From Trileptium ribeirensis (lineage: Eukaryota; Nematoda; Enoplea; Enoplida; Thoracostomopsidae), in contig JASANE010012312.1 in the NCBI GenBank assembly GCA_030248225.1, positions 41,588-105,587 on the forward strand: DNA of 64,000 nt, given 5' to 3'. The notes under the pieces were generated by a model. It did not search any database. It had not been told where the DNA came from and saw only the letters and a program-made list of their open reading frames with translations. Positions 1 through 31,560 of this stretch are shown piece by piece. Each line of letters begins with the position of its first letter. Within the stretch, counting starts at the first letter, position 1. A program made the translations under genes and the position numbers.

Positions 1-2538
1 GAGAATGCAGACGTCTTCAGCACGCACGATTTTGACCTAGGGCGTTACACTGAACATAGGCACCGCATAGAGACCGGAGATGCTAAGCCGATTAAGCAAG
101 CACCGTATCGACTAGCACATTCCTTACGCGAACCGCTTAGAGAGGAACTCAATAGTATGCTAGACGCGGGACTGATATCACCATCGAGCTCACCTTGGGG
201 ATCACCAATAGTGTATGTAACCAAGAGTGATGGCTCACTCCGGCTCTGTGTGGACTTCCGGAAGGTAAACACAGTAGCAGAACAGGATGCATATCCATTG
301 CCTAGAATAGACGACATTTTAGGATGCCTCCGAAACACTAAATTAATGTCTAGTTTAGATCTAAATAAGGGTTTCTGGCAACTAGAGTTGGACCCAGAAA
401 CAAAAGATAAGACATCTTTTGTAACAGTTCATGGACAGTATGAATACAATGTTCTGCCGTTCGGATTAAATTCATCCCCGGGGGCCTTTCAGCGTTGCAT
501 GTCCATGATTTTGAAAGGGCTGGAATGGGAAAAGTGCTTAATCTACATAGATGACATACTGGTATTTTCACCAACGTTCGAAGATCATTTAACGGATTTA
601 ATCCGGGTTTTCGACCGTTTTCGCAGAGCAAACTTAAAATTAAAACCATCAAAATGCCACTTTGGCCGAGGTAGTCTAAAATATTTAGGACACATAATTA
701 GTACAGAGGGCGTAAAACCAGACCCAGAAAAGGCAATAGCGATCGAGGAATTTAAACGTCCGGAGACATTGAAGCAGCTTCAAAGTTTCCTAGGACTAGT
801 GGGGTATTACCACAAATTTATACCAAACCACTCGGACATATGCGATCCACTCAACGAATTAAAACACAAGGATGCAGTATTTAAATGGACTCCTAAGTGT
901 GAGGACGCATTCAAGAAACTGAAACAGGCACTATTAGACGAACCCGTGCTAGTGCACCCCGATTTCACGCAGCCGTTTATCTTGCAAACGGACGCTTCAG
1001 GATACGCAATGGGCGCAGTGTTATCGCAGAAAACTAAGCAAGGTCTCAAACCCATTGCGTATGCAAGTAAAGCTCTACTAGACTATCAGCGTAGATATCC
1101 CGCAATCGAAGCCGAAGCTCTCGCGATTAGATGGGCAGCGCTACACTTTAAGCATTACTTAGTAGGGCACAAATTTCATGTCGAAACTGATCATAAACCA
1201 CTCAAGGCTTTATTTGACAAACCGCCTCGCAACTCGCGCTTATCCCAGTGGCGCAGTGAATTACTGCTTGAATTCGGAGGATTCGAAATACTCTATAGAC
1301 CAGGTAAAGAAAACGGCAATGCTGATGCTTTGTCACGGGACCCCAGGTACGACCCGCACATAACTGAGGAACAAGGAGATACCTATGAAATATTGATGAT
1401 GGGTCGAGGACGACCCACCGGCCCTCGTCCACCAACAACTTGCGCAGCATGGGATCAAGCACATCTACCATATCCCGTACGCACAGTAACACCGCTCGCA
1501 ACTGGGGCGCCAACAGCCGTAATAGGAAGCCCCATCGCTCCCCCAGGTCAACCAAACCCCGAGGCAATCCCATCGCAACTAGTCCCCGACACGCAGATAA
1601 CTACAGTACCCCCAGCAACGCTAACACAGCAAGCAGCTACGCTCAGCGCTATCCCAATTAGAATGGAGCCAGGAGAAACACCAGTAATGTCAGTACGTAC
1701 CACAACTATCTCGGGTTCTGGAGTCGGACCTCAGGCTCGAGGATCAAAAAGGCCACACCGGCCTGAATCAGAAACCATGGGTCTAAGAGCAACCACACTA
1801 CCAACTGAACAGGAATTCGATAGGCTCATGAAACTAATGATGCACTACGAAACTGAAATATTACCAACCGTTAGGATCGAAGACGCACAGGATACCCAGG
1901 AGAACATATACTTGCCGTTCTTTTCGGACCTCCCAGATTTTAATTTAGTACGGCTCCTACCATATATACATCGAAACGACCCCGAACTGGGTCCAATTTG
2001 GTGGTATTTGTACAACAAAACACGGCCCAGGGCCGAGCTAGGCGCACTAAGGATAGAAATGCGAGCTCACTACTTCGAGCTAGCTCAAGACACGAAAATA
2101 TTATATATGCACCCATTACAACCAGGGGACATAAATTATAAATTGTGCGTCCCATTTACATTAGTACAGCAAATACTCAAACATGAACACAACAATCTGT
2201 ATGGAGGACATCCTGGCCGTGATCGGCTAATAGCAAAATTGAAACAATTTTATTACTGGAAAGGTATGTCAGAACACGCACAACAATGGATCAGGCGATG
2301 CACTCTATGCCAATCCGCGACGGACCCGATTTCTCGGATAACCACCGGATTGGGCAGGGTTCCGTTGGCAAATCAACCAATGTATCGTGTATTCGTGGAC
2401 ATACTCGACATTCAGGTCAGATCACAAGCAGGCAATCGCTACGTTATTTACATTTATAGATCTATTTACAAAATTTGCAGTAGCAGTAGCGATCAGGCAC
2501 CAGGATGCACACACTGCCGCTCACATATTTTTATATGA
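1..2538 (+). CDS. pol: Retrotransposon Pol: reverse transcriptase, RNase H and N-terminal integrase (5'-partial, frameshifted at 3' end)
   Basis: This enzyme polyprotein copies element RNA into DNA and begins its integration. Counting residue 1 at base 1, the RT domain covers about residues 30-260, with LCVDFRKVN near 82, LPFGL near 152 and the catalytic YIDD box at 182-185. RNase H follows, with the TDAS aspartate at 331, ETDHKPL at 395-401 and the closing NADALSR. Residues of about 445-640 form an unusual Pro/Thr-rich linker. The integrase zinc finger is visible (H730, H737, C767, C770), and the first catalytic Asp is probably D800. The true frame leaves this ORF at about 2445-2455. The last 28 or so residues before the stop at 2538 are out-of-frame junk. 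There is no start codon in the window; the first in-frame ATG (157) is internal to the domain order. Identification is secure. Confidence 0.95.
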   Translation, partial: ENADVFSTHDFDLGRYTEHRHRIETGDAKPIKQAPYRLAHSLREPLREELNSMLDAGLISPSSSPWGSPIVYVTKSDGSLRLCVDFRKVNTVAEQDAYPLPRIDDILGCLRNTKLMSSLDLNKGFWQLELDPETKDKTSFVTVHGQYEYNVLPFGLNSSPGAFQRCMSMILKGLEWEKCLIYIDDILVFSPTFEDHLTDLIRVFDRFRRANLKLKPSKCHFGRGSLKYLGHIISTEGVKPDPEKAIAIEEFKRPETLKQLQSFLGLVGYYHKFIPNHSDICDPLNELKHKDAVFKWTPKCEDAFKKLKQALLDEPVLVHPDFTQPFILQTDASGYAMGAVLSQKTKQGLKPIAYASKALLDYQRRYPAIEAEALAIRWAALHFKHYLVGHKFHVETDHKPLKALFDKPPRNSRLSQWRSELLLEFGGFEILYRPGKENGNADALSRDPRYDPHITEEQGDTYEILMMGRGRPTGPRPPTTCAAWDQAHLPYPVRTVTPLATGAPTAVIGSPIAPPGQPNPEAIPSQLVPDTQITTVPPATLTQQAATLSAIPIRMEPGETPVMSVRTTTISGSGVGPQARGSKRPHRPESETMGLRATTLPTEQEFDRLMKLMMHYETEILPTVRIEDAQDTQENIYLPFFSDLPDFNLVRLLPYIHRNDPELGPIWWYLYNKTRPRAELGALRIEMRAHYFELAQDTKILYMHPLQPGDINYKLCVPFTLVQQILKHEHNNLYGGHPGRDRLIAKLKQFYYWKGMSEHAQQWIRRCTLCQSATDPISRITTGLGRVPLANQPMYRVFVDILDIQVRSQAGNRYVIYIYRSIYKICSSSSDQAPGCTHCRSHIFI

Positions 2539-4945
2539 GGTAGTTAATAAATACGGAGCTCCCAGGGAGCTATATTCTGATAGAGGAGGTGCTTTCACCG
2601 CACACATGTTTGAAAGCCTGTGCCAGGAAATGCACATATTTCGGCACATGAGTTTAGCATATCCCCCTCAGGCAAATGGTGAGATTGAAAGGTTCAATAG
2701 GACACTATTATATTTACTACGAGTAAGCGTACCGCAAGATGACCACCATTCATGGGATGTATCATTACCATTTTGTGTAATGGCTTACAATTCCTCGGTA
2801 CACACAGCCACCAAATATCCACCATTTTTACTAATGCATGGATTTTACCCTAGGCTACCCGTAAAATATGACACGCATAGTGCAGCCACAGGATACACTG
2901 GAGCTCACTCATATAGAGCCAACGCGCAGCGCTGGATGGCTTCTATTAGGGAACGCGCATACCAATCAATGAGAGCCGCTCAGGAAATAAATCGGCTAAG
3001 GTATAATAGGCGAGCTCGCGAACCACGTTATCAAACAGGTGAATTAGTCTGGGTCTATAGACACGATACCACACCAGGAACATCTAGAAAACTCACGCCT
3101 CGTTGGTGCGGACCATACGAAATACTAGGGATTACATCACCATGCATGCGCGTAAGAATGCATTCAAATCCGGAAGGTATGGCGCATGTGGTACACCTCA
3201 ATAGAACTAAGCCGTGTTTTAGAGCATTGGACCCAGTGCCTAATGTAGGAGACTGGCTAGGTCAGGTACACGCTTCTGTATTAGAAAGGGGCTTAAATGA
3301 ACCCATCCAAAGAATTATTGCTGATAGGGATTTTGTGACAGAAATAGAACCCGTAGACGAAGTAGCAGTGCGCACAGTAAGAACAGCAGTTAGTGATAGT
3401 TCGGACACCGAAAGTATAGAAATGGGTGACCCCAATGATCCCAACTTCTACCGCCGGACGTACGCAGAAATCGAGGCCGAACAAGCAGCAATAGAACACA
3501 TTGAGTATCGGACGGACGAATACGAACCGCAGAATCCAAGGACGGTCAGGAATCGGATTCCGCTGACTGATCCGGATAGAGAAATAGAACCCTCTTGGCC
3601 ACCAATATCGCAAGAGCAGGTTACCAGCCAAGAGGCCTTTTCATACATACCAGAACCTGGTAGCCGAGATACGCAGGTCGAATATGGACGACATACCGCA
3701 CCAGTGACGACGATGGAACGAATAGCGGCCACCAGCGAGGAGGTTCCATTCGGCGTACCGACTGTAGGTGTTGGAATACTCGAAGGACAACACTTTTATC
3801 CAGCGGACATCACGCTGTCTACAACACCAAGAGGAGCTTCAGGAGGAATCGTCGTACCTGGACCATACACCTCCGGAGATCTACGTTATGCAATCATGCT
3901 CGCTGCTCAGGACCATCCATTATTTCAATCGCGACCCGCCGAACATATTATGGCGTCACGACTACGGGTACCAATGGAGATGGCAACTCAAACTGTCGGG
4001 GACTATACAACAATGCGTCCCTATAGCGCTCCACCAGCAGCTGCCGACAGACCTATGTCTCCCCACCACTATGTCTTTCGTGAGGCGGCTGTCACTCAGC
4101 CACCTCCAGGGTCGCCGATGTCCAGCTATTTGTCGGAGACTTCGGGAGAAGGTACCACAGTGGACGTGAGAGCAGCTGAGGCAGACGACGAACTAACCAG
4201 CCGAACATCGCAGGAACCATCTTCCACCGAGCAGCTCGGTCAGGCAGGACAGGAAACATCGAATAGTGACTCTAGGACGCAACCGGGAACTTCTGGCTCA
4301 TTAAGCGAATTCACACTTGCCGGATCAAGTAGTGAAGCACCAGCACCTCAGCAAGGAACCAGTCGCCCAGTCACCTTGAGCACCCCTCCCCGCACGAGAG
4401 CCCCGCCGGAAGAGCGCGGAAAGGGCCTTGTTGGACGAGCCACACAACGGAAACAAGTCACATCGACACGAAGAGGCTCAACCATTCAGTTTGCTAGTAC
4501 CGAACAACCAGGACCGTCCACGGTGACTATCACTGATCTAGTACACCCCACTACTACTCCTACTACTACCTCCTCAGGAATAATACGACTCAGCACCGCC
4601 CAAGCAACAGCACCGACCAGACACCTTCTTCATCGCCAGGCTAGGGACCGGGTCTTTAGACCATATGGCGCAGCATCGGACGAGGAGGTAGGAGACGCCT
4701 TACGTAAACCCAGACGAGTGACTTTCCAGGAACCAGCAGCGACTACTAGCGAAACGGCTGGAACCTCTACCAGACTGGCATCTACTACTCGCACGCAGTC
4801 CACCAGTGTCACCACCTCAATGACCAGTGCACCAATCCCGGCACCCCAACAATTTCGTAGAGACGCACGCTCCCTAGGTGAAAACCAACCATCAACCTCA
4901 TTCCCACGCTATCCTTCTAGCCAGGAGCTATATCCTGCAGCTTAG
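2387..4945 (+). CDS. pol: Retrotransposon Pol continued: integrase catalytic core, GPY/F module and Pro/Ser/Thr-rich C-terminal tail
   Basis: This is the continuation of the upstream Pol in the next frame; real homology starts near 2450 and the GTG at 2387 is only where the frame opens. The core has YSDRGGAF with the second Asp codon at 2579 and NGEIERFNR with the Glu codon at 2687. That spacing is exactly D-x35-E, as expected for retroviral-type integrase. At about 3030-3210 come the GELVWVY and RWCGPYEIL blocks and VHLNRTKPC, the GPY/F module typical of Ty3/gypsy integrases. No chromodomain was recognised after it. From about 3400 to the stop the protein is a roughly 520-residue low-complexity region rich in Ser, Thr, Pro, Glu and Gln, with no family I recognise. 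Such a long tail is unusual and could contain a structural or targeting function. The frame break lies between the first and second catalytic Asp. Confidence 0.92.
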   Translation: MYSWTYSTFRSDHKQAIATLFTFIDLFTKFAVAVAIRHQDAHTAAHIFLYEVVNKYGAPRELYSDRGGAFTAHMFESLCQEMHIFRHMSLAYPPQANGEIERFNRTLLYLLRVSVPQDDHHSWDVSLPFCVMAYNSSVHTATKYPPFLLMHGFYPRLPVKYDTHSAATGYTGAHSYRANAQRWMASIRERAYQSMRAAQEINRLRYNRRAREPRYQTGELVWVYRHDTTPGTSRKLTPRWCGPYEILGITSPCMRVRMHSNPEGMAHVVHLNRTKPCFRALDPVPNVGDWLGQVHASVLERGLNEPIQRIIADRDFVTEIEPVDEVAVRTVRTAVSDSSDTESIEMGDPNDPNFYRRTYAEIEAEQAAIEHIEYRTDEYEPQNPRTVRNRIPLTDPDREIEPSWPPISQEQVTSQEAFSYIPEPGSRDTQVEYGRHTAPVTTMERIAATSEEVPFGVPTVGVGILEGQHFYPADITLSTTPRGASGGIVVPGPYTSGDLRYAIMLAAQDHPLFQSRPAEHIMASRLRVPMEMATQTVGDYTTMRPYSAPPAAADRPMSPHHYVFREAAVTQPPPGSPMSSYLSETSGEGTTVDVRAAEADDELTSRTSQEPSSTEQLGQAGQETSNSDSRTQPGTSGSLSEFTLAGSSSEAPAPQQGTSRPVTLSTPPRTRAPPEERGKGLVGRATQRKQVTSTRRGSTIQFASTEQPGPSTVTITDLVHPTTTPTTTSSGIIRLSTAQATAPTRHLLHRQARDRVFRPYGAASDEEVGDALRKPRRVTFQEPAATTSETAGTSTRLASTTRTQSTSVTTSMTSAPIPAPQQFRRDARSLGENQPSTSFPRYPSSQELYPAA
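2440..2456 (+). other. Frame disruption in integrase
   Basis: Integrase-like residues end in frame 1 (GNRYVI) and resume in frame 2 (TFIDLFTKF) within a few codons. This fits a one-base length change in the T-rich stretch around 2448-2452. It splits the catalytic core between its first and second Asp. Programmed frameshifts in Ty3/gypsy elements occur at the gag/pol junction, not inside integrase, so decay or a sequencing error is more likely than recoding. Confidence 0.8.
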
Positions 4946-5170
4946 CGACAACGGACACAACGACCACCAACGTACGAAGAATCTGATTCGGACGATCAAG
5001 ACTTACGAGTAGACTAACTCAACCCATGCTAGCACGTATCTCTAATCATGCAAACGAACAACCATAAGAGGGGGGGGAATTAGAAGAGGGGTCCAGGAAT
5101 ATATACACAATTTTATTAGGAGACAAGATAATCTTTAGATTTGGACTTATTCCCAATTTGTACATTATAG
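4946..5170 (+). other. Spacer between pol and first NADAR ORF, with purine tract
   Basis: This 225-bp spacer contains a run of eight G in a purine-rich context (about 5066-5094), which resembles a polypurine tract used to prime plus-strand DNA synthesis. Two meanings are possible. It could be an internal (central) tract of a longer element, or the original 3' tract of a shorter ancestor to which the NADAR ORFs were added. No LTR-like TG follows it directly. The spacer ends in the acceptor-like sequence before the ATG at 5171. Confidence 0.45.
5162..5170 (+). promoter_or_regulatory. Candidate 3' splice (or spliced-leader) acceptor directly before ATG of NADAR ORF 1
   Basis: The pyrimidine-containing stretch ending TACATTATAG lies with its AG immediately next to the ATG at 5171. 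Retroviral and errantiviral env genes are expressed from spliced mRNAs, and trans-splice acceptors often abut start codons. The match is short, so this is inference. It is strengthened by the same arrangement before the second ORF. Confidence 0.4.
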
Positions 5171-6001
5171 ATGCATCGAGCCCACAGCACGAACAACATC
5201 AATGCCCGTTTGATCCCAAAGGGCGTGCGGCACGCACCGGTGGACATCGACGGGCACGTGTTCCCCAAGGTGCCCCAATATTCCTTGGATCGAGCAGAGC
5301 GGTGTGAATTCTTCTCGCTCAAAAGCAAAAGGTGGAGCTACCTATCAAACGAACATTCCTCCGCCGATCGTTTCGAACACAACGAGAGGCGTCTTGCCAG
5401 TGCTGCCGAGCACTACCATATCAGCATCCTGGAGCTGTTGGGACGCGACGAGGAAGCAAAGGAATTGGGCGAAATGGACATTTTCCCAACCGAATTCCAG
5501 CTCCGCAGCATCGCCCTACAGCACCAGATTCCGCACAGTGTTCGGCGGTGGCACATGTCATACAGGGCACACCTGATGCGGCCGATTCTGTTGGCAAAAT
5601 TCAATATCGATGAGTACGCCGAGGAATTGGAAAAAACCGGCAGCCGGCAACTCCTTAGCGACTCAATGGACAATTTCTGGGGCACGGGCATTCCCCCGGC
5701 CCAATGCAGCAACCACCGAACCATCTGCCATAACGTTACAGGCCGGTTGCTCGAGGAAATCCGAGCTTTCAACCGAGATGGTTTCGTTCGATGGCCACGG
5801 GTAATCGTCGTCGGTGACGAGCAAGCCCTGACGCTTCTCGACGTAGCTGACGAGCACCACTGGCTCGTCCTCACGTACCCAACGTTGACAATGGTTGAGC
5901 TTCTGCAGTGGGCCAACGCCTTATTAACACCGCAGACGGACTGCATCTTCGTCCTTGGCGGCTATGACGACGTCTGGCTAGAACCCAGAAAATACTTTTA
6001 A
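5171..6001 (+). CDS. NADAR-domain protein 1 with C-terminal SGNH-like domain (frameshifted)
   Basis: This is a 276-residue ORF starting at the ATG after the acceptor-like AG. Residues of about 45-200 carry the NADAR blocks in order: FFSLKSKRWSYLSN (LSN at 58-60), AAEHY (E80, matching the SVEHY catalytic Glu block), MRPILLAKF, FWGTG (W170) and CHNVTGRLLEEIR (188-198). Known NADAR proteins (YbiA and the DarG antitoxin relatives) are N-glycosidases acting on ADP-ribosylated guanine or riboflavin-pathway intermediates. Residues 207-276 open a second domain with VIVVGDEQ (215-218) and FVLGGYDD (260-267), which resembles SGNH blocks I and III but has Glu in place of the nucleophilic Ser. The ORF stops at 6001 before the domain ends; the rest lies in another frame. 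It is clearly paralogous to 6717-7958. The NADAR assignment rests on motif order and is fairly strong; activity is not shown. Confidence 0.75.
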   Translation: MHRAHSTNNINARLIPKGVRHAPVDIDGHVFPKVPQYSLDRAERCEFFSLKSKRWSYLSNEHSSADRFEHNERRLASAAEHYHISILELLGRDEEAKELGEMDIFPTEFQLRSIALQHQIPHSVRRWHMSYRAHLMRPILLAKFNIDEYAEELEKTGSRQLLSDSMDNFWGTGIPPAQCSNHRTICHNVTGRLLEEIRAFNRDGFVRWPRVIVVGDEQALTLLDVADEHHWLVLTYPTLTMVELLQWANALLTPQTDCIFVLGGYDDVWLEPRKYF

Positions 6002-6441
6002 CATTTAAGCCCGCCGCATACTTTAAACGCGTCAAGCGCCACCTGGGAGTCCTGGATTGGCGCGCCCGGGAAGATGCCGCCATCTACGTTGCGTCGCCTC
6101 CCCCACATTGGGACGCCAACAACTACACGGGCGACACATGGGGTCGGCAATTCTGCACACGTAAGACGGAGCTTACCCTCAGCCACCAGTCTCTCCGCAG
6201 CGTAATTATGCCACGGTGGCCAGCGTCGCTTATGGGGACTGAAGCCTGGGACACGGTCGGACCGTTTAACCAAGGTGAAGATCGTCGGCGTTGGAACCAA
6301 CCCGTCGTGACTCCGGCGTTTCATCATGAATTGGTCGCCTGGGTAGAACAGAATCTGCAAAGTGCAGACATTATCCGGCGACCTATGGAACGACCACTGC
6401 CAAGAGAAGAATATCAGAAGTATCCTGACAGTGAGTCTTAA
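6001..6441 (+). pseudogene. Out-of-frame C-terminal remainder of NADAR protein 1 (SGNH-like domain)
   Basis: In frame 1 the sequence from 6001 stays open to a stop at 6439-6441. It contains FKRVKRHLGVL, which aligns with FKKVKRHLGVL of the second ORF at the matching position. It also contains FHHELVAWVEQNL, which could correspond to the C-terminal SGNH block V helix. A single-base length change around 5990-6001 therefore separates it from the first ORF. The piece cannot be expressed alone as written; the only internal ATG that opens it (6208) is well inside the domain. This copy of the gene is most likely inactivated, unless the break is an assembly error. Confidence 0.7.
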
Positions 6442-6716
6442 AAAAGATGAACGAAGCTTCACAAAACCGGGTAAAGCAACCTCATATAAAGGTGGGAGGG
6501 GGAAAGAAACTAATGTCCCAGGAAAGAAACTAGACTTCGAGATCATCCGGAGATGATAGAATCTTGAGTTACCACCCAGACCAAATTCAACCAAAGCAGG
6601 TGTACTAGATCTAGGATACTAATAATACATAATTCTCGTAAGAGGAACACACGTAACACGAAGCGCTGCGACAATTAAGTAATTGACAAGCATACTTATT
6701 TAAATTCCCTTTACAG
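6442..6716 (+). other. Spacer between the two NADAR ORFs; possible intron end
   Basis: No ORF of substance is present. A donor-like GTGAGT lies at 6431-6436, just before the stop of the first unit, and an acceptor lies at 6711-6716. Joining these two would not bring the two ORFs into one frame, because exon 1 would end one base into a codon. A two-module fusion by this exact pair is therefore unlikely. A purine-rich tract (about 6489-6508) is also present. Confidence 0.4.
6699..6716 (+). promoter_or_regulatory. Strong 3' splice (or spliced-leader) acceptor directly before ATG of NADAR ORF 2
   Basis: The sequence TTTAAATTCCCTTTACAG ends exactly at the base before the ATG at 6717. A pyrimidine tract followed by CAG is a canonical metazoan 3' splice site. 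It would yield a subgenomic mRNA whose first codon is the NADAR start, by cis-splicing from an upstream leader or by trans-splicing. Usage is inferred, not observed. Confidence 0.5.
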
Positions 6717-7958
6717 ATGAGCACCAGCAATGTGGATGTAACGCCAAACCGAAAATCCGGCGGACGATTGCCAGCGGTCGGACCGTACGCTCCGCCGGAG
6801 ATGGCCCTATTCAAGCTACCAACGATTCCAGTCTACCGGGTACACTTGAACAAGCCGTTCGCCGCATTCCTGTCGCATGGCACAGACTGGCCAGAGCTGT
6901 CGAACATGCACGAAACGGCAGCTCCATTCAGCAACGACGGCGTGCTAGCTAACTCCGTGGAGCGGCACTATCACGTCCAGGTGCTGGCACTTCTCGAGCA
7001 CCATGATGCTGCACGCGAACTGATGGACACAACTGACTCGCCCTTGCAGATCAAGTCGCGAGCCCGGGTGCTAAAAGACGAACTAATCGATTACGTCACC
7101 AGCGCTCGCTTAAAGCCGTTATTGGAGCACATCATGCGCCCAATATTGCTCAAGAAATTTGCCATCCCGGAGTACGCACACGTCCTCCAACTTACTGAGG
7201 ATCGGCAGTTGCTTGAGGCTTCAACGGACGCTTTCTGGGGTGTCGGACGCTCCAGTCAGCAATTACAAAACAAGGAGGCGCCTGGGCGCTGCCATAACGT
7301 AATGGGACGCTTGCTCGAAGAGGTGCGCGAATTCCGCGCCACAGGCAACGTGCGGTGGCCCCAGACAGCCATTCTGGGAGACGCGTTGGCCCTGCCTTTG
7401 TTGGAAATGGCTGAGGACAACAAGTGGTTGGTCAATGGATGGCCAGACACTCATCTTGCCCGACTTGTCCAGGCCGCCAACGCCATCGTCACGCCGCAGC
7501 TGAAGTGCATTATCTTACTGGGCGGCTACAATTACATCTATCGAAAGGCGCCTCTGGAGCAGTTCCATGCGACAAATCCTAACGCGGCATTCAAGAAGGT
7601 AAAGCGCCACCTCGGGGTTTTATCAAAACGGGTAGCGCCAACTACCACCATCATCATGACACCGCCTACACCGCGTTGGGTCGCCACTAATCAGGACGCA
7701 ACCTCCTGGACGGCCGAGTTAAAACAGTTCCTGATCAACCATCGTCAGCGCTACAACACGCTCCACAACGTGTTCATTCCAACGTGGTCCGTCGCGTTTA
7801 ACACTCCTGACGCGTGGGAGCGGGACGAGCCACACATGGAGTGGGGCGAGCGACCACAATTTCGCGAGCCGATGGTGTCAAATTACTGTCGTCGCAATCT
7901 GCGCGAATGGATGACCCACCTCGTGCGCGATGCTGAGTTGGGGCGCCTCACCCCATAG
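6717..7958 (+). CDS. NADAR-domain protein 2 with C-terminal degenerate SGNH-like domain (intact)
   Basis: This is an intact 413-residue ORF. After a basic N-terminus, NADAR blocks run from about residue 45 to 205: ELSN (60-63), NSVERHYHVQ (E82, the SVEHY-type catalytic Glu with one extra Arg), MRPILLKKF (140-148), FWGVG (W174) and CHNVMGRLLEEVREF (192-206). Residues 212-405 form a second domain: TAILGDALA (GDA 221-223), ILLGGYNYI (N272) and a late helix with MVSNYCRRNL. The spacing is like SGNH/GDSL hydrolases (GDS, then GxND, then a late His), but Ser is replaced by Ala and no clear catalytic DxxH is seen, so it is probably binding or structural. It shares long blocks with ORF 1 (RQLL...FWG.G; HNV.GRLLEE.R; VRWP), consistent with tandem duplication. 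There is no signal peptide or membrane segment, so it is not an env glycoprotein. A plausible but untested role is removing ADP-ribose marks from nucleic acid placed by host defence. Confidence 0.78.
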   Translation: MSTSNVDVTPNRKSGGRLPAVGPYAPPEMALFKLPTIPVYRVHLNKPFAAFLSHGTDWPELSNMHETAAPFSNDGVLANSVERHYHVQVLALLEHHDAARELMDTTDSPLQIKSRARVLKDELIDYVTSARLKPLLEHIMRPILLKKFAIPEYAHVLQLTEDRQLLEASTDAFWGVGRSSQQLQNKEAPGRCHNVMGRLLEEVREFRATGNVRWPQTAILGDALALPLLEMAEDNKWLVNGWPDTHLARLVQAANAIVTPQLKCIILLGGYNYIYRKAPLEQFHATNPNAAFKKVKRHLGVLSKRVAPTTTIIMTPPTPRWVATNQDATSWTAELKQFLINHRQRYNTLHNVFIPTWSVAFNTPDAWERDEPHMEWGERPQFREPMVSNYCRRNLREWMTHLVRDAELGRLTP

Positions 7959-8971
7959 ATAGTTGTAGGTGCACTGTGTAACGTTAGCAGCTGACGCGAG
8001 CGAGGAACGAAATAAGAGCATGAAAGGAAACGAAAAGATCAGTCAGTATGACTTGCTAGGAGACGCATTGAGAGTGGTAGTTAGGAGCACGAAACGCATC
8101 TAGGTAACAGCAGTGAGATGTTCCTAAGACAGCAATTTAAAATACTATCTACGAGCAATGCAGGTAACCTGTAACTGAACCAGTCAGGCGTCATCGATAC
8201 GACTTGGTGGGTTAGGAGATCTACCAAGCTAAAGTACAAACTTTAAATAGAATACTCAATATGGCGAACACCAAGGACCAACTTTAGATGAGATTAAGCT
8301 AAACCAAACGGGCAGACCAATCCCCACTTGCAACTGGAAATAGCTTAAAATAACCCCTGGGTCAGGGCATAACCGGCAGCCGGGTCCTTTCTTGGGGTGA
8401 ACCAAAGCTACGATGGAGGTACGTGCTAGAGACGTGTAAATATATATATGGTTTCTGTAATGATGTTGTATATGCATATGTATAACGTTTAGAACGTTGG
8501 AAAAATTTTACAATTAGGTCAGGCAGGAGATTTTTCTGAACCACTACAACAAAACAGGAATAAAACTTAAACTCAAATGTTATAAACCATAAGGGAAAAC
8601 TTACAAAACTACCGAAAATAAAGGGAGAAGGGACACGTTTTTGGTGATAACCAAACAAATTGATCGTCCTTCTACCCTCGTTTTAGCAAATTTTAACAAA
8701 TTTTTGGGAAATTCTTGGAAAATTTTCGAAATTTATTGTAAATTTATCCCCAAACGGGCTAAATTTTTGGAAAATTCTCGAAATTTACGGTAATTTTAAG
8801 CTCAAACGGGCTAAATTTTCAAATTTCATACAAATTTTACCTAATTGAAATCAAGGGCTGTGCATCACATGGAATTAATCACGCAAAATTTTCACTTTCT
8901 TTTCGTATCTCGACAAATTTAACTTACTACCATAAGTAAGGAGTCTATAAAATCCAAAAAATTTTAAGAGA
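7959..8971 (+). other. 3' untranslated region of the retrotransposon
   Basis: No ORF of substance occurs between the stop of the second NADAR ORF and the putative LTR. Around 8690-8830 the motif AAACGGGCTAAATTTT recurs twice in AT-rich short direct repeats. A purine tract (8613-8632) and the short AAGAGA just before 8972 are the only polypurine-tract candidates near the LTR edge. The last 160 bp or so resemble 30306-30498, which also leads into TGTAACAGCC. Confidence 0.6.
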
Positions 8972-9949
8972 TGTAACAGCCCGAAATTTTAGGGATTTCA
9001 ACAATATATTTAAATAAGGAAAATCAGTTAAAGTAAGGTCAAAATCAGTAAAACGGGGTACGATAGGCGATCGGATACCGGTGGAGCGTGACCTAAGTAT
9101 TATGTTGTGTATTAGCATTCATTATTGTTATAAAAATAAACTATGTTATGGATGTAATTGGTCGTATCGTCACGCCCCACACGCCCGAGGTGCACGGGGT
9201 GATTTTGGCACCAAGATGGAATACATGCGATTTCAAGTGTGGTATCCGGTCGACCCTAAGTGAATTCGATGATGACGTGTGCATTTATAATATATTGAAT
9301 GTATGCATAATGAAATGTTATATTATTTTAGTTTATGTGGTAAGAGAGTGGAGCACCGCGTGTCCGGGTGGGTCTGGGCAGTATATGGGATCCTTTAAGA
9401 GAAAATCTAATGGGGAAACTTTTGTCACATTTCTAACCTCGAGGACCCATCCTGGCATGCGCTTGCGGAACAACTGAGCCCAGGAGCGAAGCGAGAAATT
9501 TTCGGGAAAGAATAGCAACCGAACTTAACTAAACCGTAAATTTTATAGGGCCTACTCAAAAGCAAAATTTCAATAGTTTTTGGACATCCAAGGCCAAGTA
9601 GGCTTATCACATCGTTAATAGGGTCCCTTAAGGCTTCAAAATTTCGCGATCGGGCCAAGTTGGCTCTTACTGGTAGGTACTTAGGGACCCCTAAGTAAGC
9701 GTTTAAACCCCCAACTTTCAACGGCTCAGAGCTAAACCAAAATTACCAAAACTCCCCAATTTTTCAAGCTCGACACCTCCAAAGTATTGTACCCCAACTG
9801 TCTAACCGAAAACCGGGGTCACCTAACTTAACCGGTCCGAGAAGGACCCCAATAACCCTCCCGGGACACCAAAATTCTTTGTTTGAATCTCACGAAACGG
9901 CCCCTAACAGGTCATCCCGGAGGAGATACGTAAAATTTGATATTTCCAT

Positions 9950-10197
9950 CAGTAGGCGACCAGCCAGGGCGTGAACCTGGTCCTGCCCCCGGTCGCCTAC
10001 TGTTCTCCGTTGGCTCGCAATCATCGAGAACGCATCCAAATTTTAATGCAATGCTGGCGCTCTGAGCGCCCACATAAAGTTTCTCCTGAAAATCGCCTCG
10101 CCGACCAGCGCGAGGTTTTGTAGCAGTTGGCACCCTTCGGCCACCGCTCCCTGTTTATGTTGTTTTTATACTATGGGGTGTGAACCATAGTATAAAA
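9950..10197 (+). other. Cluster of four hairpins in copy E
   Basis: There are four perfect inverted repeats in 250 bp. The arms are CAGTAGGCGACC at 9950-9961 with 9991-10002 (12 bp, enclosing a CCAGG/CCTGG inner stem); GGCGCT/AGCGCC at 10056-10070; CCTCGC/GCGAGG at 10096-10115; and TTTTATACTATGG at 10164-10176 with 10185-10197 (13 bp, 8-nt loop). The density suggests a structured RNA leader or packaging-like region. Function is unknown. Confidence 0.6.
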
Positions 10198-10433
10198 GAA
10201 AAGGGCTCGACGCAGCGTCGGGACCAGTCGGGAGAGACGCCGCTAGAGTCGGCGGTTTTTGTTGTTTGCACTTGGCGGTTGTCGCCGTTTCGTTTAAAGA
10301 TTTCAAATTTTGCGTTTTGTTTTGGTTTCTTTTCATTGACCAGGGGTAGCTCCTACTGTGTAGAAACAGGACGAAGTGCCCCCTGGTGAGTTTCCTGTTT
10401 CTAAAATTGACTAGGAGGGGTCGCCCTTGCCGG

Positions 10434-10469
10434 TGCGGGTCCGTCCGAAGGATGCTCCGTGCACCCGCA
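10434..10469 (+). other. Hairpin conserved between copies E and G
   Basis: Arms TGCGGGT (10434-10440) and ACCCGCA (10463-10469) enclose CCGTCCGAAGGATGCTCCG. The counterpart at 31145-31180 keeps the inner GATGCTCCG but has a longer stem, with CGGGCGC pairing GCGCCCG and GGGGCATC pairing GATGCTCC. Both copies maintain pairing although the stem bases differ. Confidence 0.55.
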
Positions 10470-10842
10470 AGTGCGATCCCAACGCCGTTGATAAGGAGCA
10501 CGCTAAAACTATTCACGAAAAGTCAAATCTCGACTGGTTCCCCGCTCGCCGGGTCGCCATTTTTATTTTAGACCCGGGGGCGAAAAAATTTTATAACTTT
10601 AGTGATGTGAAAGGGGTACGGAATGAGGAATACACACGGGGAGGGGGAAGGACACAGGGACATGGGAGGGGTAAGGCAATTAAAGAAAGAAAAACCTAGT
10701 AGCGTGTTGACCTGGAGGCAGCCGCTAAGGCAGATGATAATAGAGTATAAGTAAGGATCTGAGCTAGGCTGACCCCTCAAAGTTCGAGCATTTGTCCCTG
10801 AGTGTTTCATTTAATCGGTCCTCTATTAGGTCGTTCAAAACC

Positions 10843-11783
10843 AGTCTTCCAGGCCGTTTAGACACGGTAGAAGACTTTGGTAATTTACAGCAATCAGTTT
10901 AGGACCCCGCCACAAATTGGCGTTATAAAACATTTCTAATTTTTCAAGCAACCTTCAAAAGACAATGGAGCCTCTCTCGTCTCGTGCTCCATCCGCGCTG
11001 GCTGTCGTAGTCGTAGCTTGAGTCGAGCCTAAGGTATAGGAAAATCTACTAGAACAACCCCAGGTCACACGACTCAAAGACCCAGTATTGGGGGAAGTAG
11101 AGCGAGCGGTCCGCTCGGGACGGACGCAGTCATTTGCACGCAAGAAGCACTTTAAAGAAATAAAGAACGGAACCCCTGACGCTAGCCTCAGAAATTCGAG
11201 CTTCTACTCTGAGATTTGTTTCCTTTTCAATGAAAATTCTATCGTCCCACCCAAAGTACAGACGGGTCTCAGGCAGTTTAGACACGGTAGAGTACTCTGT
11301 CACGTATTTTTACAGTGGAACAACTATCGATGGGTCGATGCGGCTGCCCCATAGGGAGCGAGGTATCAGGACCTTATGTGCGTTGTTTTCCCCACTTCTC
11401 ACGGTTTTGCAAATCTACAATGCTAACCATACAGGGGTATCCGAAATGTTTTCAAACTAAAAACCATCACTGCCGTCTTTTGGCTTTTGGTTCTCAAACT
11501 AAGAAATTCATCGAGGGCGCGGCAGCGTGCGCCCCTTTCACGTGTGTAAATGACTGCGGACCTCCACTAAATTCAAAGGAGTGCAGTACCAAATTAAAAA
11601 ATGAGACGGAGTCAGCTGCCACGTATAGTCGAGTCGAAATTTTAAGGAAACTCTTGTGCACGCACCCGTTAGTTGAGCGACGGCTCTGAGAAGACTACAA
11701 AGTGATTGTTTCCCCAAAGTTTTGTGTGAAAGAAATTCATAGGCGCGGACCCACAGACCGTTTAGACACGGTGGGTTTCCGCC
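10843..11783 (+). repeat. Three spaced hairpins sharing the loop CGTTTAGACACGG
   Basis: A CNGTTTAGACACGGT core occurs at about 10854, 11274 and 11758. Around the first, AGTCTTC (10843) pairs GAAGACT (10870). Around the third, GGCGCGGACCCAC pairs imperfectly with GTGGGTTTCCGCC. Around the second only short pairing is seen (ACAGA/TCTGT and CTC/GAG). Spacing is about 420 and 485 bp. Constant loops with different stems suggest a selected structure or a protein-binding loop. Confidence 0.5.
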
Positions 11784-13070
11784 ATGGTTTCATGTCAAAA
11801 TCATCAACTCAAGAAATCATTACAAGACAGACAAAATTCGGGAGACGCGGCAGCGCATCCCTCTTTTGATGACAACCCGCATTTTAAGCTGACCCTGGCG
11901 CACGCAGAGTTGATGACAAACTTTCATTACAAGTAACCAGCAGCTGACGTCCGGCCTCAAGATAAAGTACGAGATGGAGTACAAAGTGAAAAGAGGTTAA
12001 TGGCAGGAGAGTGTCCAATGACCCGGAGTTTTTCACAGGCGAAGTCAACAAGCGGTCGGCCAGGAAGGTTCATCTTTATGTCCTGTCAGGCGGGTAAGGC
12101 AGTCCACAGGGTACAAAACATAGGCGCCAGCTGAATGGATTTTTACATGGGGTTTAATCAGGATTCACATCACCCGTTCGGTATCTAAGTATATCACGGG
12201 TTGCCCTGCGAGGTACCCATACATTTTGCTATATATATGATACTTGTTATTGGAACGTCATAACTTGCAATTTGTCTGAATAAAGTGTTAGCGTGTGAAA
12301 CTTATAGTAGGCGATATGTGTTTAGTGCAGTGGTTAAACTAGCCCTTTGAACAACGAAGATACAAAGTGACCCTAAGGCTAATTTCAAAACTAGGTTTAG
12401 TCCTGAAATTCATAGTTAGGCTTGTTAAATGTTTGGTGCCCGACTTTACTCAAATTTTACTCGCGCTAGATAAGAACCCTGGCGATTGAGCCCCAGGTGT
12501 TCCCTCAAGCTACCGGTTCTGCAGGAAACCTCTTGTGGAACCGACGAAATTTATTGTCTGAACTAGGCTCCCGCGTACCAGACTAAAATAAGGAATCGCC
12601 CCTCCATTGAGGATTTAAATAGAATTGAGGGAAAGGGGAGTCAGCCTTATTACCTGTGAGCAGGCTTAGGGGTTGACTCTCCCTCAGGGGGACCTTCGTA
12701 CCACTAGATACGTGGGCCAAAATAGGGGCCAGGCCGAACACCCTGGTTAACCCGCCGGCAGCCTACTAAGCTAAGCGGTTCCCTTAGGTTATCTAGCAGA
12801 TCACCGGGGAGTCGTGGAAGCCGGGGTTGTCCGGGCACCACACCGAGAAAATTGGTGGTGCAGCTGGGATCCCTTAGGGCCAGAACTGGTCCTAGTACAC
12901 TATTACTACAAAAGCTGTATAAAGTGCACGCACGTCTCAACAATCGTTATAGGAATAAGAGCCTCTACTACTTTTCCTGTTAGAATAATTGCTATTATAG
13001 ATGCTCATAGAGGTAAAAGAGCTATGTCACACTTATGCGGCTTTACGTAACAAACGACCCTACATGTGGA

Positions 13071-16467: not shown

Positions 16468-16892
16468 TGTTTGTATAAAAAATATCATATACCGTTTGTA
16501 TAAAAAATGTCATAAACTGTTTTGTATAAAAAATATCATATACCGTTTGTATAAAAATGTCATAAACTGTTTTGTATAAAAATATCGTATACCGTTTGTA
16601 TAAAAATATCGTATACCGTTTGTATAAAAATTGTCATAAACTGTTTTGTATAAAAATATCGTATACCGTCTGTATAAAAATATCGTATACCGTTTATATA
16701 AACATTGTCATAAACTGTTTTGTATAAAATATCGTATACCGTTTGTATAAAAATATCGTATACCGTTTGTATAAAAATATCGCATACCGTTTGTATAAAA
16801 ATATCGTATACCGTTTGTATAAAAATATCGCATACCCTTTGTATAAAATATCGTATACCGTTTGTACAAAAATGTTGTATACTGTTTGTATT
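16468..16892 (+). repeat. 24-bp minisatellite, about 17 units
   Basis: Unit a is ATCGTATACCGTTTGTATAA plus a short A run; unit b carries GTCATAAACTG and an extra T. The order of a and b types is a b a b a a b a a b followed by a run of a, a partial higher-order pattern. As 24 is a multiple of three, both strands are accidentally open (199 codons on the minus strand). That ORF is not a gene. Confidence 0.95.
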
Positions 16893-17619: not shown

Positions 17620-18080
17620 CAGAACCGGCGCATGCGACCCCTCGTTTGGTCCACCGTGACTAGCTGAATCCAACGACATGCTCCAGACCTTCGTCCGAGT
17701 CCTTGCTGACTCGCGGTAGCCACGCAACGGCGCCTAGAAAGCTGTTGTCAACCGCTGATGGGCGCCGACAAATCGAGATTTTTCGCTCAACTCTAAAATG
17801 GGCGAACCGCCCCTCATTGGATTCGTCTTGATGAGACATCTCCAAAAATACCCGGCGGGTCTCGGTCCGCCGCCCCGTTAACCCTGGACAACCAACAAAA
17901 GCGTCCCTACCGTAGCCATCACTCTCCCTAATCGCCGCAATTTTAGTACCGTTTTTACTCCTGCCGTCCCAGTAGCAATATCACCCCTCGTTCGAATCGC
18001 CGTTGGACGGTGAGTCCAACGATACCCGGCGGGCGTCGCTCCGCCCATCCGTTAACGTAGGAGAGCCCGCTAAAGCTCCC
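17620..18080 (+). repeat. Internal direct repeats of copy A (CCCGGCGGG units)
   Basis: ATACCCGGCGGG at 17850 and 18025 is each followed by a short GC-rich stretch and CCGTTAAC. A more diverged unit precedes near 17630-17690. Copies B (28260-28640, inverted) and D (57190-57560, inverted) have three such units about 160-170 bp apart. Confidence 0.55.
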
Positions 18081-25889: not shown

Positions 25890-27944
25890 GGACAGCAAAC
25901 ACCTTATGCTCAAGGTGAGATACTTAGAATTTGTTCAATCTTTTATGGTCCCAAATTTTCTTAACTCGGTCGGATAAACAAAATTTTGGGGCTTCCGGAC
26001 GCCCAACGGAGGCTAGTCCTCGGTTCCTAACCGTTAAGTCTGTTCGAGCTCAAACACGGCATAAGCGTCGAACGGTCAACTAAGCTATAAATTTAGAAAC
26101 CGTAACTGTTAACAACGAAGCAAGTCCTTACTGTTGCAACTGATACACATTGGAAAATTTTGCCGTGGTCAGTTCAGGAAATTCGATAACCCTAACTCAA
26201 GAGCGGCAAGTCATGTCAGGCAAATGGATGAGAGCGTCCATTTTAATTGGACCTACCTAAGACCACGGGGAATCAGAAGGACTTCGCTTTGGTTCCCACA
26301 ACTCACTACCATCCCGTGCAATTGTCCACAACGGCCAAAACGGAACTCGACTTGAGGAGGTTTGTCAAGGAACTTGTAAAAATGTAGCAAGTCGGCGGGA
26401 AAAAAGGGGGACGTCTAACGACAGACGTCAAGTCCACCTATAGGGTACGATCGGTGCTACTGTCAACTAAATTTCTATGAGCCTGGCACTGTTACATCTG
26501 GGGAAACTAAACCCCCATGATCCACGATAACCTCCAAGAGTTACTTACAACCTTCGATCCGGGGCAGCACTTGCTAGCCCCCTTCGCGAGACGGAAGATA
26601 TCTGCGCGGGTCGTCCAACGGTCGAATCCCATTCCAAACGCGAAAAACGGAAAGCACGAGAAAGCAAAATTATTGCGAAACCATACTACAGGAACTCTAG
26701 CGTCGGAGCCGGTCAGTAGGGTCGACCGAACTCCGCGCTGCCGAAGTCGAACTGATTCCAAGAGTCGACGCGTTGGTCGTAACCTTAAATTTTTCGCCTA
26801 TCTTGTAGGATAGCGATTTTGTCGCCATCCAATCGCTGACGATTTTTCTTGACGCCCACTTTTTCGAGTTCAAACCCGAGCGCCCAATCATAAAATTACC
26901 CAAATTTTATTTTTGACATGTATCGTAAACTCTGGGTCCCCTTTAGAGAAAGTAGGCTTCAATCGAAATCGCCGACATCAAGTTTGAACCTTCCGAATAC
27001 TCAGAGGTCAAACATCTGCGAATTTGACCCGAATTTTCTTGAAATTTTGAACCATGTCCCATCTGTATTTTCAAATTTATGTCAATCAGCTTAAAATTTC
27101 TTACGCAAAACCCATCAGTCGAATCTTTGAACCTCATGCCCAACCTAAATCCGCCGTTATTCCCCTACTGTCCTACGAAAGTGATTAAATCACTTGTCAA
27201 ATTCGAAATCAGTAAGTCGACTTACGTATGGGAACAGTTGGAATAAGTTAGGAATTTATCTTCGTTTCAGGTCAATCTCGTCTTCATGTTCCCATTCATC
27301 AAATTTTGTTGGCTAACTCGTATCTGTGAAGCTTAACTCCTATTATTCGGCGAGTTAGCGGTCCCATCCATCATATGCGCAAGCATCCTAAAAGTCCAAC
27401 TGGCGGCTAAATTCTCCATCAAACTCATGGATCAACGTGCAGACATTGCACGTTTATATGTCGGCTCGTGGGATAAAGCCAAACATCCTTTCTGACGTTG
27501 CCAAGTGTCGAGGCATAGTGTTTATAAGCGTCCCAGGGGGAGCCGGTGACGGAAACGAATCCATCTTGAGGTTGGGGTGCAACATACTCCTAGGGACTCT
27601 CAATGAAAAAGAGGCTCTGGTCGGGAGCGTCGGGAACCCGCGGGAATGCCCGAAACACACCACTTTCCTTCCCGAGAGTCTGTGTCCAGTCCGTCCATAA
27701 AACTTATAAATTTAGTGACATTTTGTATGTACTGTCCTCGTCCGTCCTGTTTTTGTCATGTCCTCACATATATAGATATGTAAGTCCGGACACTTATATT
27801 ATGTACATGCCTATATAGATATACATATGTATATATATACGCATATACATATAAATACTCATGAACACATAAACACACAATACACACAAGACACAAAGGC
27901 GACCTGAGCAACAGAAAAGTCGCTCAAGTTCGCAACAGAAACAC

Positions 27945-27977
27945 ACAACACAACAACAACAACAACAACAACAGCAG
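27945..27977. repeat. CAA trinucleotide microsatellite inside copy B
   Basis: About ten CAA units followed by CAGCAGCC. The surrounding purine-rich stretch (27990-28070) corresponds to the polypyrimidine stretch of copies A and C, and to the purine stretch at 56895-57000 of copy D. Confidence 0.9.
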
Positions 27978-28256
27978 CCACCGACCAAAGAAGTCGGTTA
28001 GAGAGAGAAAAAGAGAAAGAGCGAAAAGGGCAACGACGACACGGAGAGCGAAAACAAGGCGCATGGGAGGGAAGCGCGACGAGGTGTATCCCGGGGGGTT
28101 TTCGAGGGGCTGGGGTGAGATTCGGTCCCAAAACGAAGAACGGGGCCGATAGATACCAAACACGAGGGTGTGGACGTAGTATCGGGTCGGGACCCATATA
28201 TGGGTTCCGACATAGGTAAGTACGTAGGGCTTTAGCTGGCTTTCCCGCGCTAACGG

Positions 28257-30305: not shown

Positions 30306-31560
30306 TAACTAACTTCAAATTGTTGGAAACTTTTTCAAATTTAAAATTTTCAATATTTTAATTGAATTTATGAGCTGTACATCATAAGGAACTATGAGCT
30401 AAACCTTCCACATAAATTTCACATTTTCCTATATTCTCACACAAAATTGATTCTTACCCTAAGTAAAGAGTCCAATAAATCCGAAAATATTTAAGAGATG
30501 TAACAGCCTGAGATTGTTGGGCAATTCCATGGGATATACTAATTTAAACAACAAAGGGCTGATTTTCGCATTTCCGATTTTAACAATGGAAATTAAATGA
30601 ACCCGACTTGCAGGTATCCTGTCGATCCCACAATATTTTTATGTGTGCAATAAAATTATCATATGTCATAAAGAGTTTTGTTTTGAAAGGAAAGAACGTA
30701 TGTGCACCAGGATATGCCAGGGACAGTGGTCAAAATACTTTTATCAACCATTCTTTTGCTTCCACAATTTCAGTGCCCAATAGGTGATCCCGGTACGAAT
30801 ACCTATAAAATTAATTGTATTTTATATATACAAGATCATGATGCGTAGTGTATGGTGCGTGTCAGGACGGTCATGCGGCACAGTATAGAACGTTCGCGAA
30901 TTTGGACCTGGATATTTCGTAGCGACGCTACGACGCTTGAAAAGATCGGTTCTGGCAGGCATACGTAACTGTATTGTTGGTACATGGATACTGTAACATT
31001 TTAAGGAGATAAAAGACGGCGAAAAGAATCCGGCAAAACTCGAAGGAATATCGAAGGAATAATGCTTTGCGCATGAGTGATCTAAATTTCCAAGTTATTT
31101 ACTGCATGTATAACTAGTTTACAATTGCCATGGGGCCGGCCTTGCGGGCGCTGGGGCATCGGAATGATGCTCCGCGCCCGTAACTGCGTGAGCCCGAAAT
31201 GAAAATCGCGCTTTTTTCAAAAAATTCAATTTCCTTCGAGCTCGACTGGTTCCCCTACCCACCAGGCGCTCTCTACATGATATCAGTTTCTTGTTGGGTA
31301 GTTGCTTTAGTTTGTATTGTATTTATCTGTTACGTGATTAGCAAAAAATGGGGATCAGAAGGACACAGGATGAGTGGGCGATTTTTGTGGAATGTGTCAA
31401 CCTGGAGTCAGTTGCGACCACTGCCCGGGGTCTAGTCAACAACAAAATAACCGGTGAAGCCACCATCAAGTGTAAACGGTGTTTCAATACAGTGGCTGGT
31501 GGTGCTCAAGTAGCTCCAGGTTCGTCAGGAATTTACATGCATTCAGTCATAATGTCATAA
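30306..31560 (+). repeat. Fragment G: second copy of the retrotransposon 3'UTR/LTR junction
   Basis: Bases 30306-30498 resemble 8810-8971, including AAGTAAAGAGTC close to AAGTAAGGAGTC and TTTAAGAGA. Both lead straight into TGTAACAGCC (30499 and 8972). Downstream blocks also match copy E: the GATGCTCCG hairpin (31145-31180), CTCGACTGGTTCCCC (31239 with 10530) and GTGTCAACCTGGAGTCAG (31387) with the GTGTTGACCTGGAGGCAG block at 10703. The shared junction is the best evidence that 8972 is a true LTR edge. Confidence 0.6.
31145..31180 (+). other. 15-bp hairpin in fragment G
   Basis: CGGGCGC pairs GCGCCCG and GGGGCATC pairs GATGCTCC (one G-T pair), with one bulged T and loop GGAAT. It is the counterpart of 10434-10469. 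Confidence 0.65.

What the first reader, a model, noticed from the sequence alone, without database searches (positions are those of the whole stretch)
5171..7958. A Ty3/gypsy retrotransposon appears to carry two NADAR-domain proteins where env would be
Both ORFs directly follow an integrase-encoding pol on the same strand and lie before the putative 3' LTR. Each shows the ordered NADAR blocks (LSN, S/A-V/A-E-[R]HY, M-RPILL-KF, FWG-G, HNV-GRLLEE-R). NADAR enzymes known from bacteria, phages and giant viruses remove ADP-ribose from guanine or process riboflavin intermediates. An LTR element carrying them suggests a counter-defence or genome-protection role: undoing nucleic-acid ADP-ribosylation during reverse transcription. 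The family assignment rests on motifs; the role is inference. I know of no described case but could not search.
Basis: partly seen in the sequence, partly recalled or inferred. Interest (0 to 1): 0.93.

Follow-up and report, generated by a model that had tools for sequence, protein, structure and literature searches.

The report
Paired NADAR genes in giant retrotransposon
A very large jumping gene, present in many copies in one eukaryote's genome, carries two related genes of a family known for stripping ADP-ribose from nucleic acids, in the spot where relatives keep a coat gene, and selection has kept them largely unchanged.

Summary
After a Ty3/Gypsy-type pol lie two NADAR genes (Pfam 53.0 and 33.9 bits; cut-off 35.1); the first carries a frame break here. 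A copy elsewhere has two ~4.3-kb TG...CA LTRs and spans about 27 kb. A second subfamily has the same pol-NADAR-NADAR order. Median dN/dS is 0.04 (ORF B) and 0.09 (ORF A). ORF B keeps both distal-ribose glutamates but lacks the lysine that guanine de-ADP-ribosylation needs; ORF A lacks both glutamates in register. So 'undoes guanine ADP-ribosylation' is inference, with evidence against. NADAR in Gypsy elements is already published (brown algae, inside Pol; PMC12477816); I found no report of two paralogues in the env position.

The parts
1..2538 (+). pol, first part: reverse transcriptase, RNase H, integrase zinc-binding domain (window begins inside pol)
   Evidence: Pfam RVT_1 2.4e-31, RT_RNaseH 1.2e-33, Integrase_H2C2 2e-17; 68-69% identical to two metagenomic proteins over the RT-RNase H part
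2387..4945 (+). pol, second part in another frame: integrase core, GPY-type module, long low-complexity C-terminal extension; frame break near 2450 in this copy
   Evidence: Pfam rve 1.7e-9; P0006 match switches frame between 2448 and 2453; the two copies that cover the break (L077, L078) run through it in one frame
5171..6001 (+). ORF A, NADAR domain part (first NADAR gene, cut here by a frame break)
   Evidence: Pfam NADAR 4.8e-8, 33.9 bits; 37% identical to ORF B; open across the covered part in 11 of 23 other copies that cover most of it, dN/dS 0.091 among those 11
5998..6441 (+). ORF A, C-terminal part, in the next frame
   Evidence: 27% identity over 124 aa to ORF B C-terminus, 3e-12
6697..6716 (+). 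splice-acceptor-like tract abutting the ORF B start codon
   Evidence: YAG|ATG in 29 of 30 loci, window included; a YAG|ATG also precedes ORF A at 5171 in the window
6717..7958 (+). ORF B, second NADAR gene: NADAR domain (about residues 56-206) plus a ~207-aa C-terminal domain with a weak SGNH/GDSL resemblance
   Evidence: Pfam NADAR 6.2e-14; Lipase_GDSL_2 0.0075 on the C-terminal part alone, below cut-off; dN/dS 0.040 over 276 pairs
7959..8971 (+). 3' untranslated part of the internal region, ending in AAGAGA
   Evidence: aligned in other copies; junction AAGAGATGTAACAGCC exact in 25 of 29 other copies
8972..12899 (+). 3' LTR (TGTAACAG...TAGTACA), 3928 bp
   Evidence: matches the 5' LTR of the copy on contig C12847 in four pieces (73-87%) and ends at the same base as both its LTRs
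30332..31255 (+). diverged 3' UTR/LTR fragment of a related element (junction at 30499)
   Evidence: 70% identity over 195 columns to 8816-8994 and short collinear blocks downstream

Best explanation
Shown: a giant (about 27 kb in one copy), multicopy Ty3/Gypsy-type LTR element carries, between pol and the 3' LTR, two paralogous NADAR genes that move with it and, in the copies that kept them open, were under strong purifying selection. Inferred: they are accessory proteins made from spliced subgenomic mRNAs (AG abutting the ATG), like env in retroviruses. ORF B most likely works as a ribosyl N-glycosidase on an NAD- or ADP-ribose-derived N-glycoside, with altered phosphate recognition, to undo a host modification or signal that would restrict the element's RNA or cDNA. 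ORF A is a diverged partner, perhaps for ligand binding or targeting, since it lacks the glutamates in register. The C-terminal domain may guide localisation.
For: NADAR assignment. Membership in the element: 29 of 29 other loci align to the same repeat around ORF B; 23 carry most of ORF A, 3 only its tail and 2 nothing of it because the contig begins there, 1 lost it by deletion but has pol upstream; 26 run past 8972. pol in one alignment upstream of ORF A in 5 of 5 and in both second-subfamily copies fetched. LTR pair of about 4.3 kb each. Selection: ORF B dN/dS 0.040 among the 24 of 30 loci free of stops; ORF A, not the search query, 0.091 among 11 loci; pol 0.096. ORF B keeps E82, E167, D171, W174 in 24 of 24 and in both second-subfamily copies. 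The two NADAR starts are 2 of the 5 YAG-preceded ATGs among 131 in 1-8400; YAG|ATG before ORF B in 29 of 30 loci. Between subfamilies ORF A (46-47% identical) and ORF B (69%) changed more than pol (79-89% over integrase and extension), as host-facing genes may.
Against: The Lys essential for guanine de-ADP-ribosylation (K50 of the P. nicotianae enzyme) is V or L in ORF B and I or V in ORF A; no basic residue stands at the R79 and R93 positions of ORF B and no Trp at W89 (placements depend on distant alignments). ORF A has stops or frame breaks in 12 of the 23 other copies that cover most of it, and is deleted in one. NADAR ORFs have GC3 0.57-0.69 against 0.36-0.45 in pol, unexplained. ORF B copies were chosen by protein score and for lack of stops, which biases dN/dS down. 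No activity, structure, splice junction or expression was seen.
Confidence: 0.5

Rival explanations
1. The NADAR proteins are no longer hydrolases but ligand- or RNA-binding proteins (as one could imagine for SNA-3 or LINE ORF1 proteins), used for RNA packaging, export or localisation.
For: Loss of phosphate-contact residues in ORF B and of both Glu in register in ORF A; nematode SNA-3 is a multi-NADAR protein needed for SL1 trans-splicing whose first NADAR domain lacks the conserved residues (PMC9303266 passages); NADAR-like ORF1 of oyster Tx1 LINEs (PMC12477816 passages).
Against: ORF B keeps E82, E167, D171 and W174 in 24 of 24 stop-free loci and in both second-subfamily copies, which pure binding would not obviously demand.
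Confidence: 0.33
2. The two ORFs are host genes, or genes of another element, that merely lie beside a truncated Gypsy element.
For: GC3 differs from pol; this copy is 5'-truncated.
Against: Same order and contiguous alignment in dispersed copies; genes lie inside the LTR pair; A-over-T skew of 4946-8400 is reached by 0 of 496 background windows.
Confidence: 0.02
3. The proteins stand in for an envelope or membrane function through their C-terminal domain, as in GDSL ORF3 proteins of bdelloid LTR elements, the NADAR part being secondary.
For: Env position; weak Lipase_GDSL_2 match (0.0075 to 0.025; 4 of 8 members); bdelloid precedent (PMC5408684 abstract and part 1 of section 7).
Against: Match far below cut-off; at my recalled place of the GDS serine ORF B has Ala (GDALA); no PDB hit for the C-terminal part up to E 10; the NADAR part is at least as constrained as the C-terminal part (0.031 against 0.036).
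Confidence: 0.1
4. The NADAR genes act in riboflavin-intermediate clean-up like YbiA, as a metabolic gene captured by the element.
For: TIGR02464 riboflavin-intermediate N-glycosidase model matches ORF B at 1.9e-12, under its cut-off (47.7 of 73.7 bits).
Against: No riboflavin gene was seen beside them; a mobile element gains nothing obvious; two diverged paralogues are kept.
Confidence: 0.04

Closest known systems
Ectocarpus Gypsy families with a YbiA-family NADAR domain (e.g. Gypsy-12_Ec32; PMC12477816, passages read)
   Same: Gypsy LTR elements that acquired NADAR, kept in all families of one lineage
   Different: [quoted passage not shown] here two separate, paralogous genes after pol with a second C-terminal domain, in a ~27-kb element.
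Bdelloid rotifer LTR retrotransposons with enzymatic ORF3 (GDSL esterase, DEDDy exonuclease; PMC5408684, abstract and part 1 of section 7)
   Same: Non-envelope enzyme genes in the env position
   Different: No NADAR named in the parts I read; GDSL residues intact there, while any SGNH relationship here is weak
NADAR-like ORF1 of Crassostrea gigas Tx1 LINEs (mentioned in PMC12477816)
   Same: NADAR in a retrotransposon
   Different: Non-LTR element; NADAR in ORF1
DarT1-NADAR antitoxins, P. nicotianae NADAR, YbiA (PMC11543638 and PMC11125620, passages)
   Same: Same Pfam family; distal-ribose Glu pair, Asp and Trp kept in ORF B
   Different: Essential Lys and several phosphate contacts absent; extra C-terminal domain
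SNA-3 of nematodes (PMC9303266, passages)
   Same: Several diverged NADAR domains in a eukaryote, one lacking the conserved residues

Membership tests
NADAR (PF08719) | Match above Pfam gathering score | tested here: met
   ORF B 53.0 bits against 35.1; ORF A's front part 33.9 bits, just under
NADAR (PF08719) | Distal-ribose Glu pair (E43, E125), D130, W133 | tested here: met
   ORF B E82, E167, D171, W174. ORF A keeps only D and W in register, so not met for ORF A
Guanine-ADP-ribose hydrolase NADAR | Lys (K50/K95) or Arg at the phosphate-binding position | tested here: not met
   V or L in ORF B, I or V in ORF A
Guanine-ADP-ribose hydrolase NADAR | Hydrolysis of ADP-ribosylated guanine | not testable with these tools
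   Needs biochemistry
Ty3/Gypsy LTR element | gag zinc knuckle, then protease, RT, RNase H, integrase | tested here: met
   zf-CCHC and protease in L082; RT, RNase H, H2C2, rve in window. Seen on different copies in pieces, not on one joined sequence; no gag capsid model matched L082 at E 0.1
Ty3/Gypsy LTR element | Two LTRs with TG...CA ends flanking the internal region | tested here: met
   One copy, C12847: about 4.3 kb each, 84.0% and 88.3% alike in the two parts compared; the middle of the 3' LTR was not fetched
Ty3/Gypsy LTR element | Target-site duplication | tested here: not met
   TATAT against GTTCA at copy C12847, the one copy tested
Ty3/Gypsy LTR element | RT phylogeny inside the Gypsy clade | not tested
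   Only domain order and homologue hits were used
Retrovirus-like element with env | An envelope fusion protein after pol | tested here: not met
   The two ORFs in the env position match NADAR and no envelope model in Pfam
SGNH/GDSL hydrolase (C-terminal domain) | Significant profile match and catalytic Ser | tested here: inconclusive
   E 0.0075, 17.2 of 32.9 bits; no PDB hit; structure prediction never ran

The most novel reading that the evidence does not exclude
The element encodes a two-subunit NADAR machine: ORF B supplies the catalytic glutamates, ORF A the aromatic ligand clamp (it keeps a Trp at the W89 position that ORF B lacks), and together they remove a nucleic-acid or small-molecule ADP-ribose adduct that the host uses against retroelements. 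The host's NADAR-rich DNA elements answer the same pressure, which would point to an ADP-ribose-based arms race.
Probability: 0.15. Interest if true: 0.88.

Novelty: new variant of a known kind. Interest (0 to 1): 0.64.

Why it matters
NADAR enzymes are widespread in eukaryotes with unclear roles (PMC11125620 passages). A mobile element that keeps two of them at dN/dS below 0.1 among open copies, in the place of env, through at least two subfamilies makes the question testable: which NAD-derived modification or signal would otherwise stop the element? With NADAR in brown-algal Gypsy and oyster LINEs it suggests repeated recruitment by retrotransposons, and in this genome also by virus-like DNA elements.

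Tried and rejected
Rejected: (1) a 3' LTR starting at the G-rich tract near 5066: no TG follows it, and the junction shared by copies lies at 8972. (2) Homology of the short reading frame before the 30499 LTR to the ORF B tail: 905 of 5000 shuffles and 930 of 2921 window 35-mers scored as high. (3) Similar spacers before ORF A and ORF B: 9 of 200 shuffles reached the score. (4) Host genes beside a truncated element. (5) Relatives elsewhere: none for the whole ORF B among the candidates scored (5,464 at E 0.001 or less; 8,000 at E 10 or less; by the tool's length rule ordinary 150-180-aa NADARs are not candidates); viral contigs none; 10 phage records match the NADAR part at 26-32% identity; 13 distant Gypsy loci in bacterial assemblies, 35-41% identical, none with a tblastn match to the NADAR ORFs, but these contigs are only 3.7-6.1 kb. 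(6) Rfam (15 matches, none at gathering score) and tRNA scans (0) of the window.

Not obtained: structure prediction and so no fold search; genome-wide LTR and integrase counts (genome search answered only; busy at 4, 10, 29, 36, 47, 56, 68, 73, 79, 92, 93, 95, 97, 101, 103, 105, 111, 113, 116, 118, 120, 122, 130, 133, 138, 143).

Dropped rows: for pol dN/dS I left out L080, whose match changes frame near the end of pol, and used L077, L078, L079, L081 and the window. dN/dS of ORF B used 24 of 30 loci, of ORF A 11 of 30.
Full report
WHAT IS THERE. The window starts inside the pol gene of an LTR element. ORF 1-2538 matches reverse transcriptase, RNase H and the integrase zinc-binding domain, ORF 2387-4945 the integrase core. 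The two are one gene with a frame break near 2450: the match to a metagenomic relative switches frame between 2448 and 2453, while the two other copies that cover this point run through it in one frame (L077, L078). Then follow ORF A (5171-6001, continued in the next frame at 5998-6441) and ORF B (6717-7958). Pfam NADAR: ORF B 6.2e-14, 53.0 bits (cut-off 35.1); ORF A's front part 4.8e-8, 33.9 bits. A and B are 37% identical over 267 aa; ORF A's second piece matches the C-terminus of ORF B (27% over 124 aa, 3e-12).

DO THE GENES BELONG TO THE ELEMENT? The host genome (687 Mb, 20,229 contigs, unnamed) could be searched twice. With ORF B, 101 places were scored out of 2,629 candidates, all with E below 1e-195: 57 at 75-100% identity (52 of them 86% or more) and 44 at 68-70%. 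I compared the 29 best other loci with the window. All 29 align around ORF B. ORF A is mostly covered and aligned in 23; 3 show only its tail and 2 nothing of it because the contig begins there; 1 (L068) lacks it by a deletion that brings the end of pol near ORF B. 26 run on past 8972; a few have gaps. Of five copies extended upstream, five have pol directly before ORF A in one alignment, 88-90% identical at DNA level. Two second-subfamily copies have the same order: pol 79-89% (integrase and extension), ORF A 46-47%, ORF B 69% identical at protein level.

WHERE ARE THE LTRs? The sequence TAAGAGA|TGTAACAGCC around 8972 recurs in a diverged fragment in the window (70% over 195 columns) and, as AAGAGATGTAACAGCC, exactly in 25 of 29 other copies (26 with at most two mismatches). 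On contig C12847 the block that begins with TGTAACAG occurs twice, before a gag-like ORF and after the NADAR genes, and both end in TAGTACA, where the match of the window copy also ends, at 12899. From the coordinates the two are 4,319 and 4,316 bp, and the element spans 27,141 bp; the middle of the 3' LTR and part of gag-pol of that copy were not fetched. The two parts compared are 84.0% (363 of 432) and 88.3% (1,436 of 1,626) identical. The short flanks differ (TATAT and GTTCA), so no target-site duplication was found in this one copy. The window copy shows no LTR match in the 10 kb upstream, and its match to another copy's gag-pol begins about 1 kb before the window: it is 5'-truncated.

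SELECTION. Among 24 of 30 loci (window included) whose ORF B frame is free of stops, median dN/dS is 0.040 over 276 pairs (dN 0.029, dS 0.741; range 0.012-0.158); the NADAR part 0.031, the C-terminal part 0.036. These loci were picked by protein score and for open frames, which lowers dN. ORF A was not the query: 11 loci are open across the covered part, dN/dS 0.091 over 55 pairs; 12 of the 23 other copies that cover most of ORF A carry stops or frame breaks. The integrase and extension part of pol gives 0.096 over 10 pairs, with L080 left out. So among open copies the NADAR genes are as constrained as pol within the subfamily. Between subfamilies ORF A and ORF B have changed more than pol. 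The break near 5998 in the window's ORF A was not seen in the other copies compared; intact copies exist.

EXPRESSION SIGNALS. The start codons of ORF A and ORF B each directly follow a pyrimidine-rich stretch and YAG (tacattatag|ATG, ccctttacag|ATG). Of 131 ATGs in 1-8400 only 5 follow YAG, and the two NADAR starts have the best pyrimidine tracts of the five (9 and 11 of 14). Before ORF B, YAG|ATG is kept in 29 of 30 loci; for ORF A this was not counted. This suggests spliced or trans-spliced mRNAs; no RNA was seen.

ACTIVE SITE. I mapped residues through the printed alignments to 8bau, taking its numbering as two above that of PMC11543638 (passages read), and by a second alignment with phage and DNA-element NADARs. 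ORF B keeps E43 (E82), E125 (E167), D130 (D171) and W133 (W174), invariant in 24 loci and present in both second-subfamily copies. It lacks K50 (V or L), R79 (D or N), W89 (R) and R93 (L or E, by alignment). ORF A keeps D and W, has A or T where E43 belongs with a Glu one place on, S, V or N at E125, I or V at K50, and a Trp at W89. The paper found the Lys essential for guanine-ADP-ribose hydrolysis, replaceable by Arg in vitro. ORF B may therefore act on another substrate; ORF A is probably not active in the standard way. A weak SGNH/GDSL match in the C-terminal part (0.0075 alone, 0.025 in the whole protein, under cut-off, 4 of 8 members) stays a lead.

COMPOSITION. The A-over-T skew of pol (0.187) continues across 4946-8400 (0.159; 0 of 496 background windows reach it), but third-position GC is 0.57-0.69 in the NADAR ORFs against 0.36-0.45 in pol. 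This speaks for a foreign source or for separate codon pressure; it does not undo the linkage.

PRIOR WORK. Papers naming NADAR or YbiA with retrotransposons or transposable elements were sought (104 papers, 20 listed; 15, all listed; 7, all listed; 1,732, 25 listed; 1). [quoted passage not shown] its authors suggest processing of RNA intermediates. PMC5408684 (abstract, section 7 part 1) describes enzyme genes in the env position of bdelloid LTR elements. PMC9503650 (passages) reports NADAR in animal RNA viruses and supports the proposal that they target host ADP-ribosylation. I found no report of paired NADAR genes after pol.

VERDICT. A real, multicopy, selected feature; a new variant of a known kind (NADAR recruited by Gypsy elements). 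Role inferred only.

Noticed in passing
L016-L045 (host genome): NADAR is multiplied in this genome: 150 scored of 2,317 candidates, all over the cut-off. In 28 of the 30 loci fetched NADAR sits with at least one recurring neighbour gene; 25 of 30 have a Pox_A32-like ATPase, and many have a TATA-binding-protein gene (PF00352, 1.1e-32 in L019). They look like Polinton/adintovirus-like DNA elements (name from recall); two of the 30 gave a weak tblastn match to ORF B.
   Followed up: partly
L032, L044: Two further NADAR loci lie beside an ORF that by eye looks like a helicase; no profile search was made.
   Followed up: no
L082 (reverse strand): gag-pol of another copy is one open frame of at least 2,167 aa with about 2,000 aa of protein without a Pfam match (E 0.1) between the zinc knuckle (52-67) and the protease (2089-2166).
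   Followed up: partly
L086, L087 against window 3401-7958: Between element subfamilies pol is 79-89% identical but ORF A only 46-47% and ORF B 69%: the NADAR genes change faster than pol.
   Followed up: partly
window 5171-7958: Third-position GC of the NADAR ORFs (0.57-0.69) differs sharply from pol (0.36-0.45).
   Followed up: no
window 10190-10225: TATAAAAG inside the 3' LTR with a CAGT about 30 bases on; a plausible LTR promoter, seen by eye.
   Followed up: no
window 16469-16891; 17833-18489 and 27813-28468; 19011-19416 and 55650-56052: A 24-base tandem array and several dispersed repeats, some inverted.
   Followed up: no
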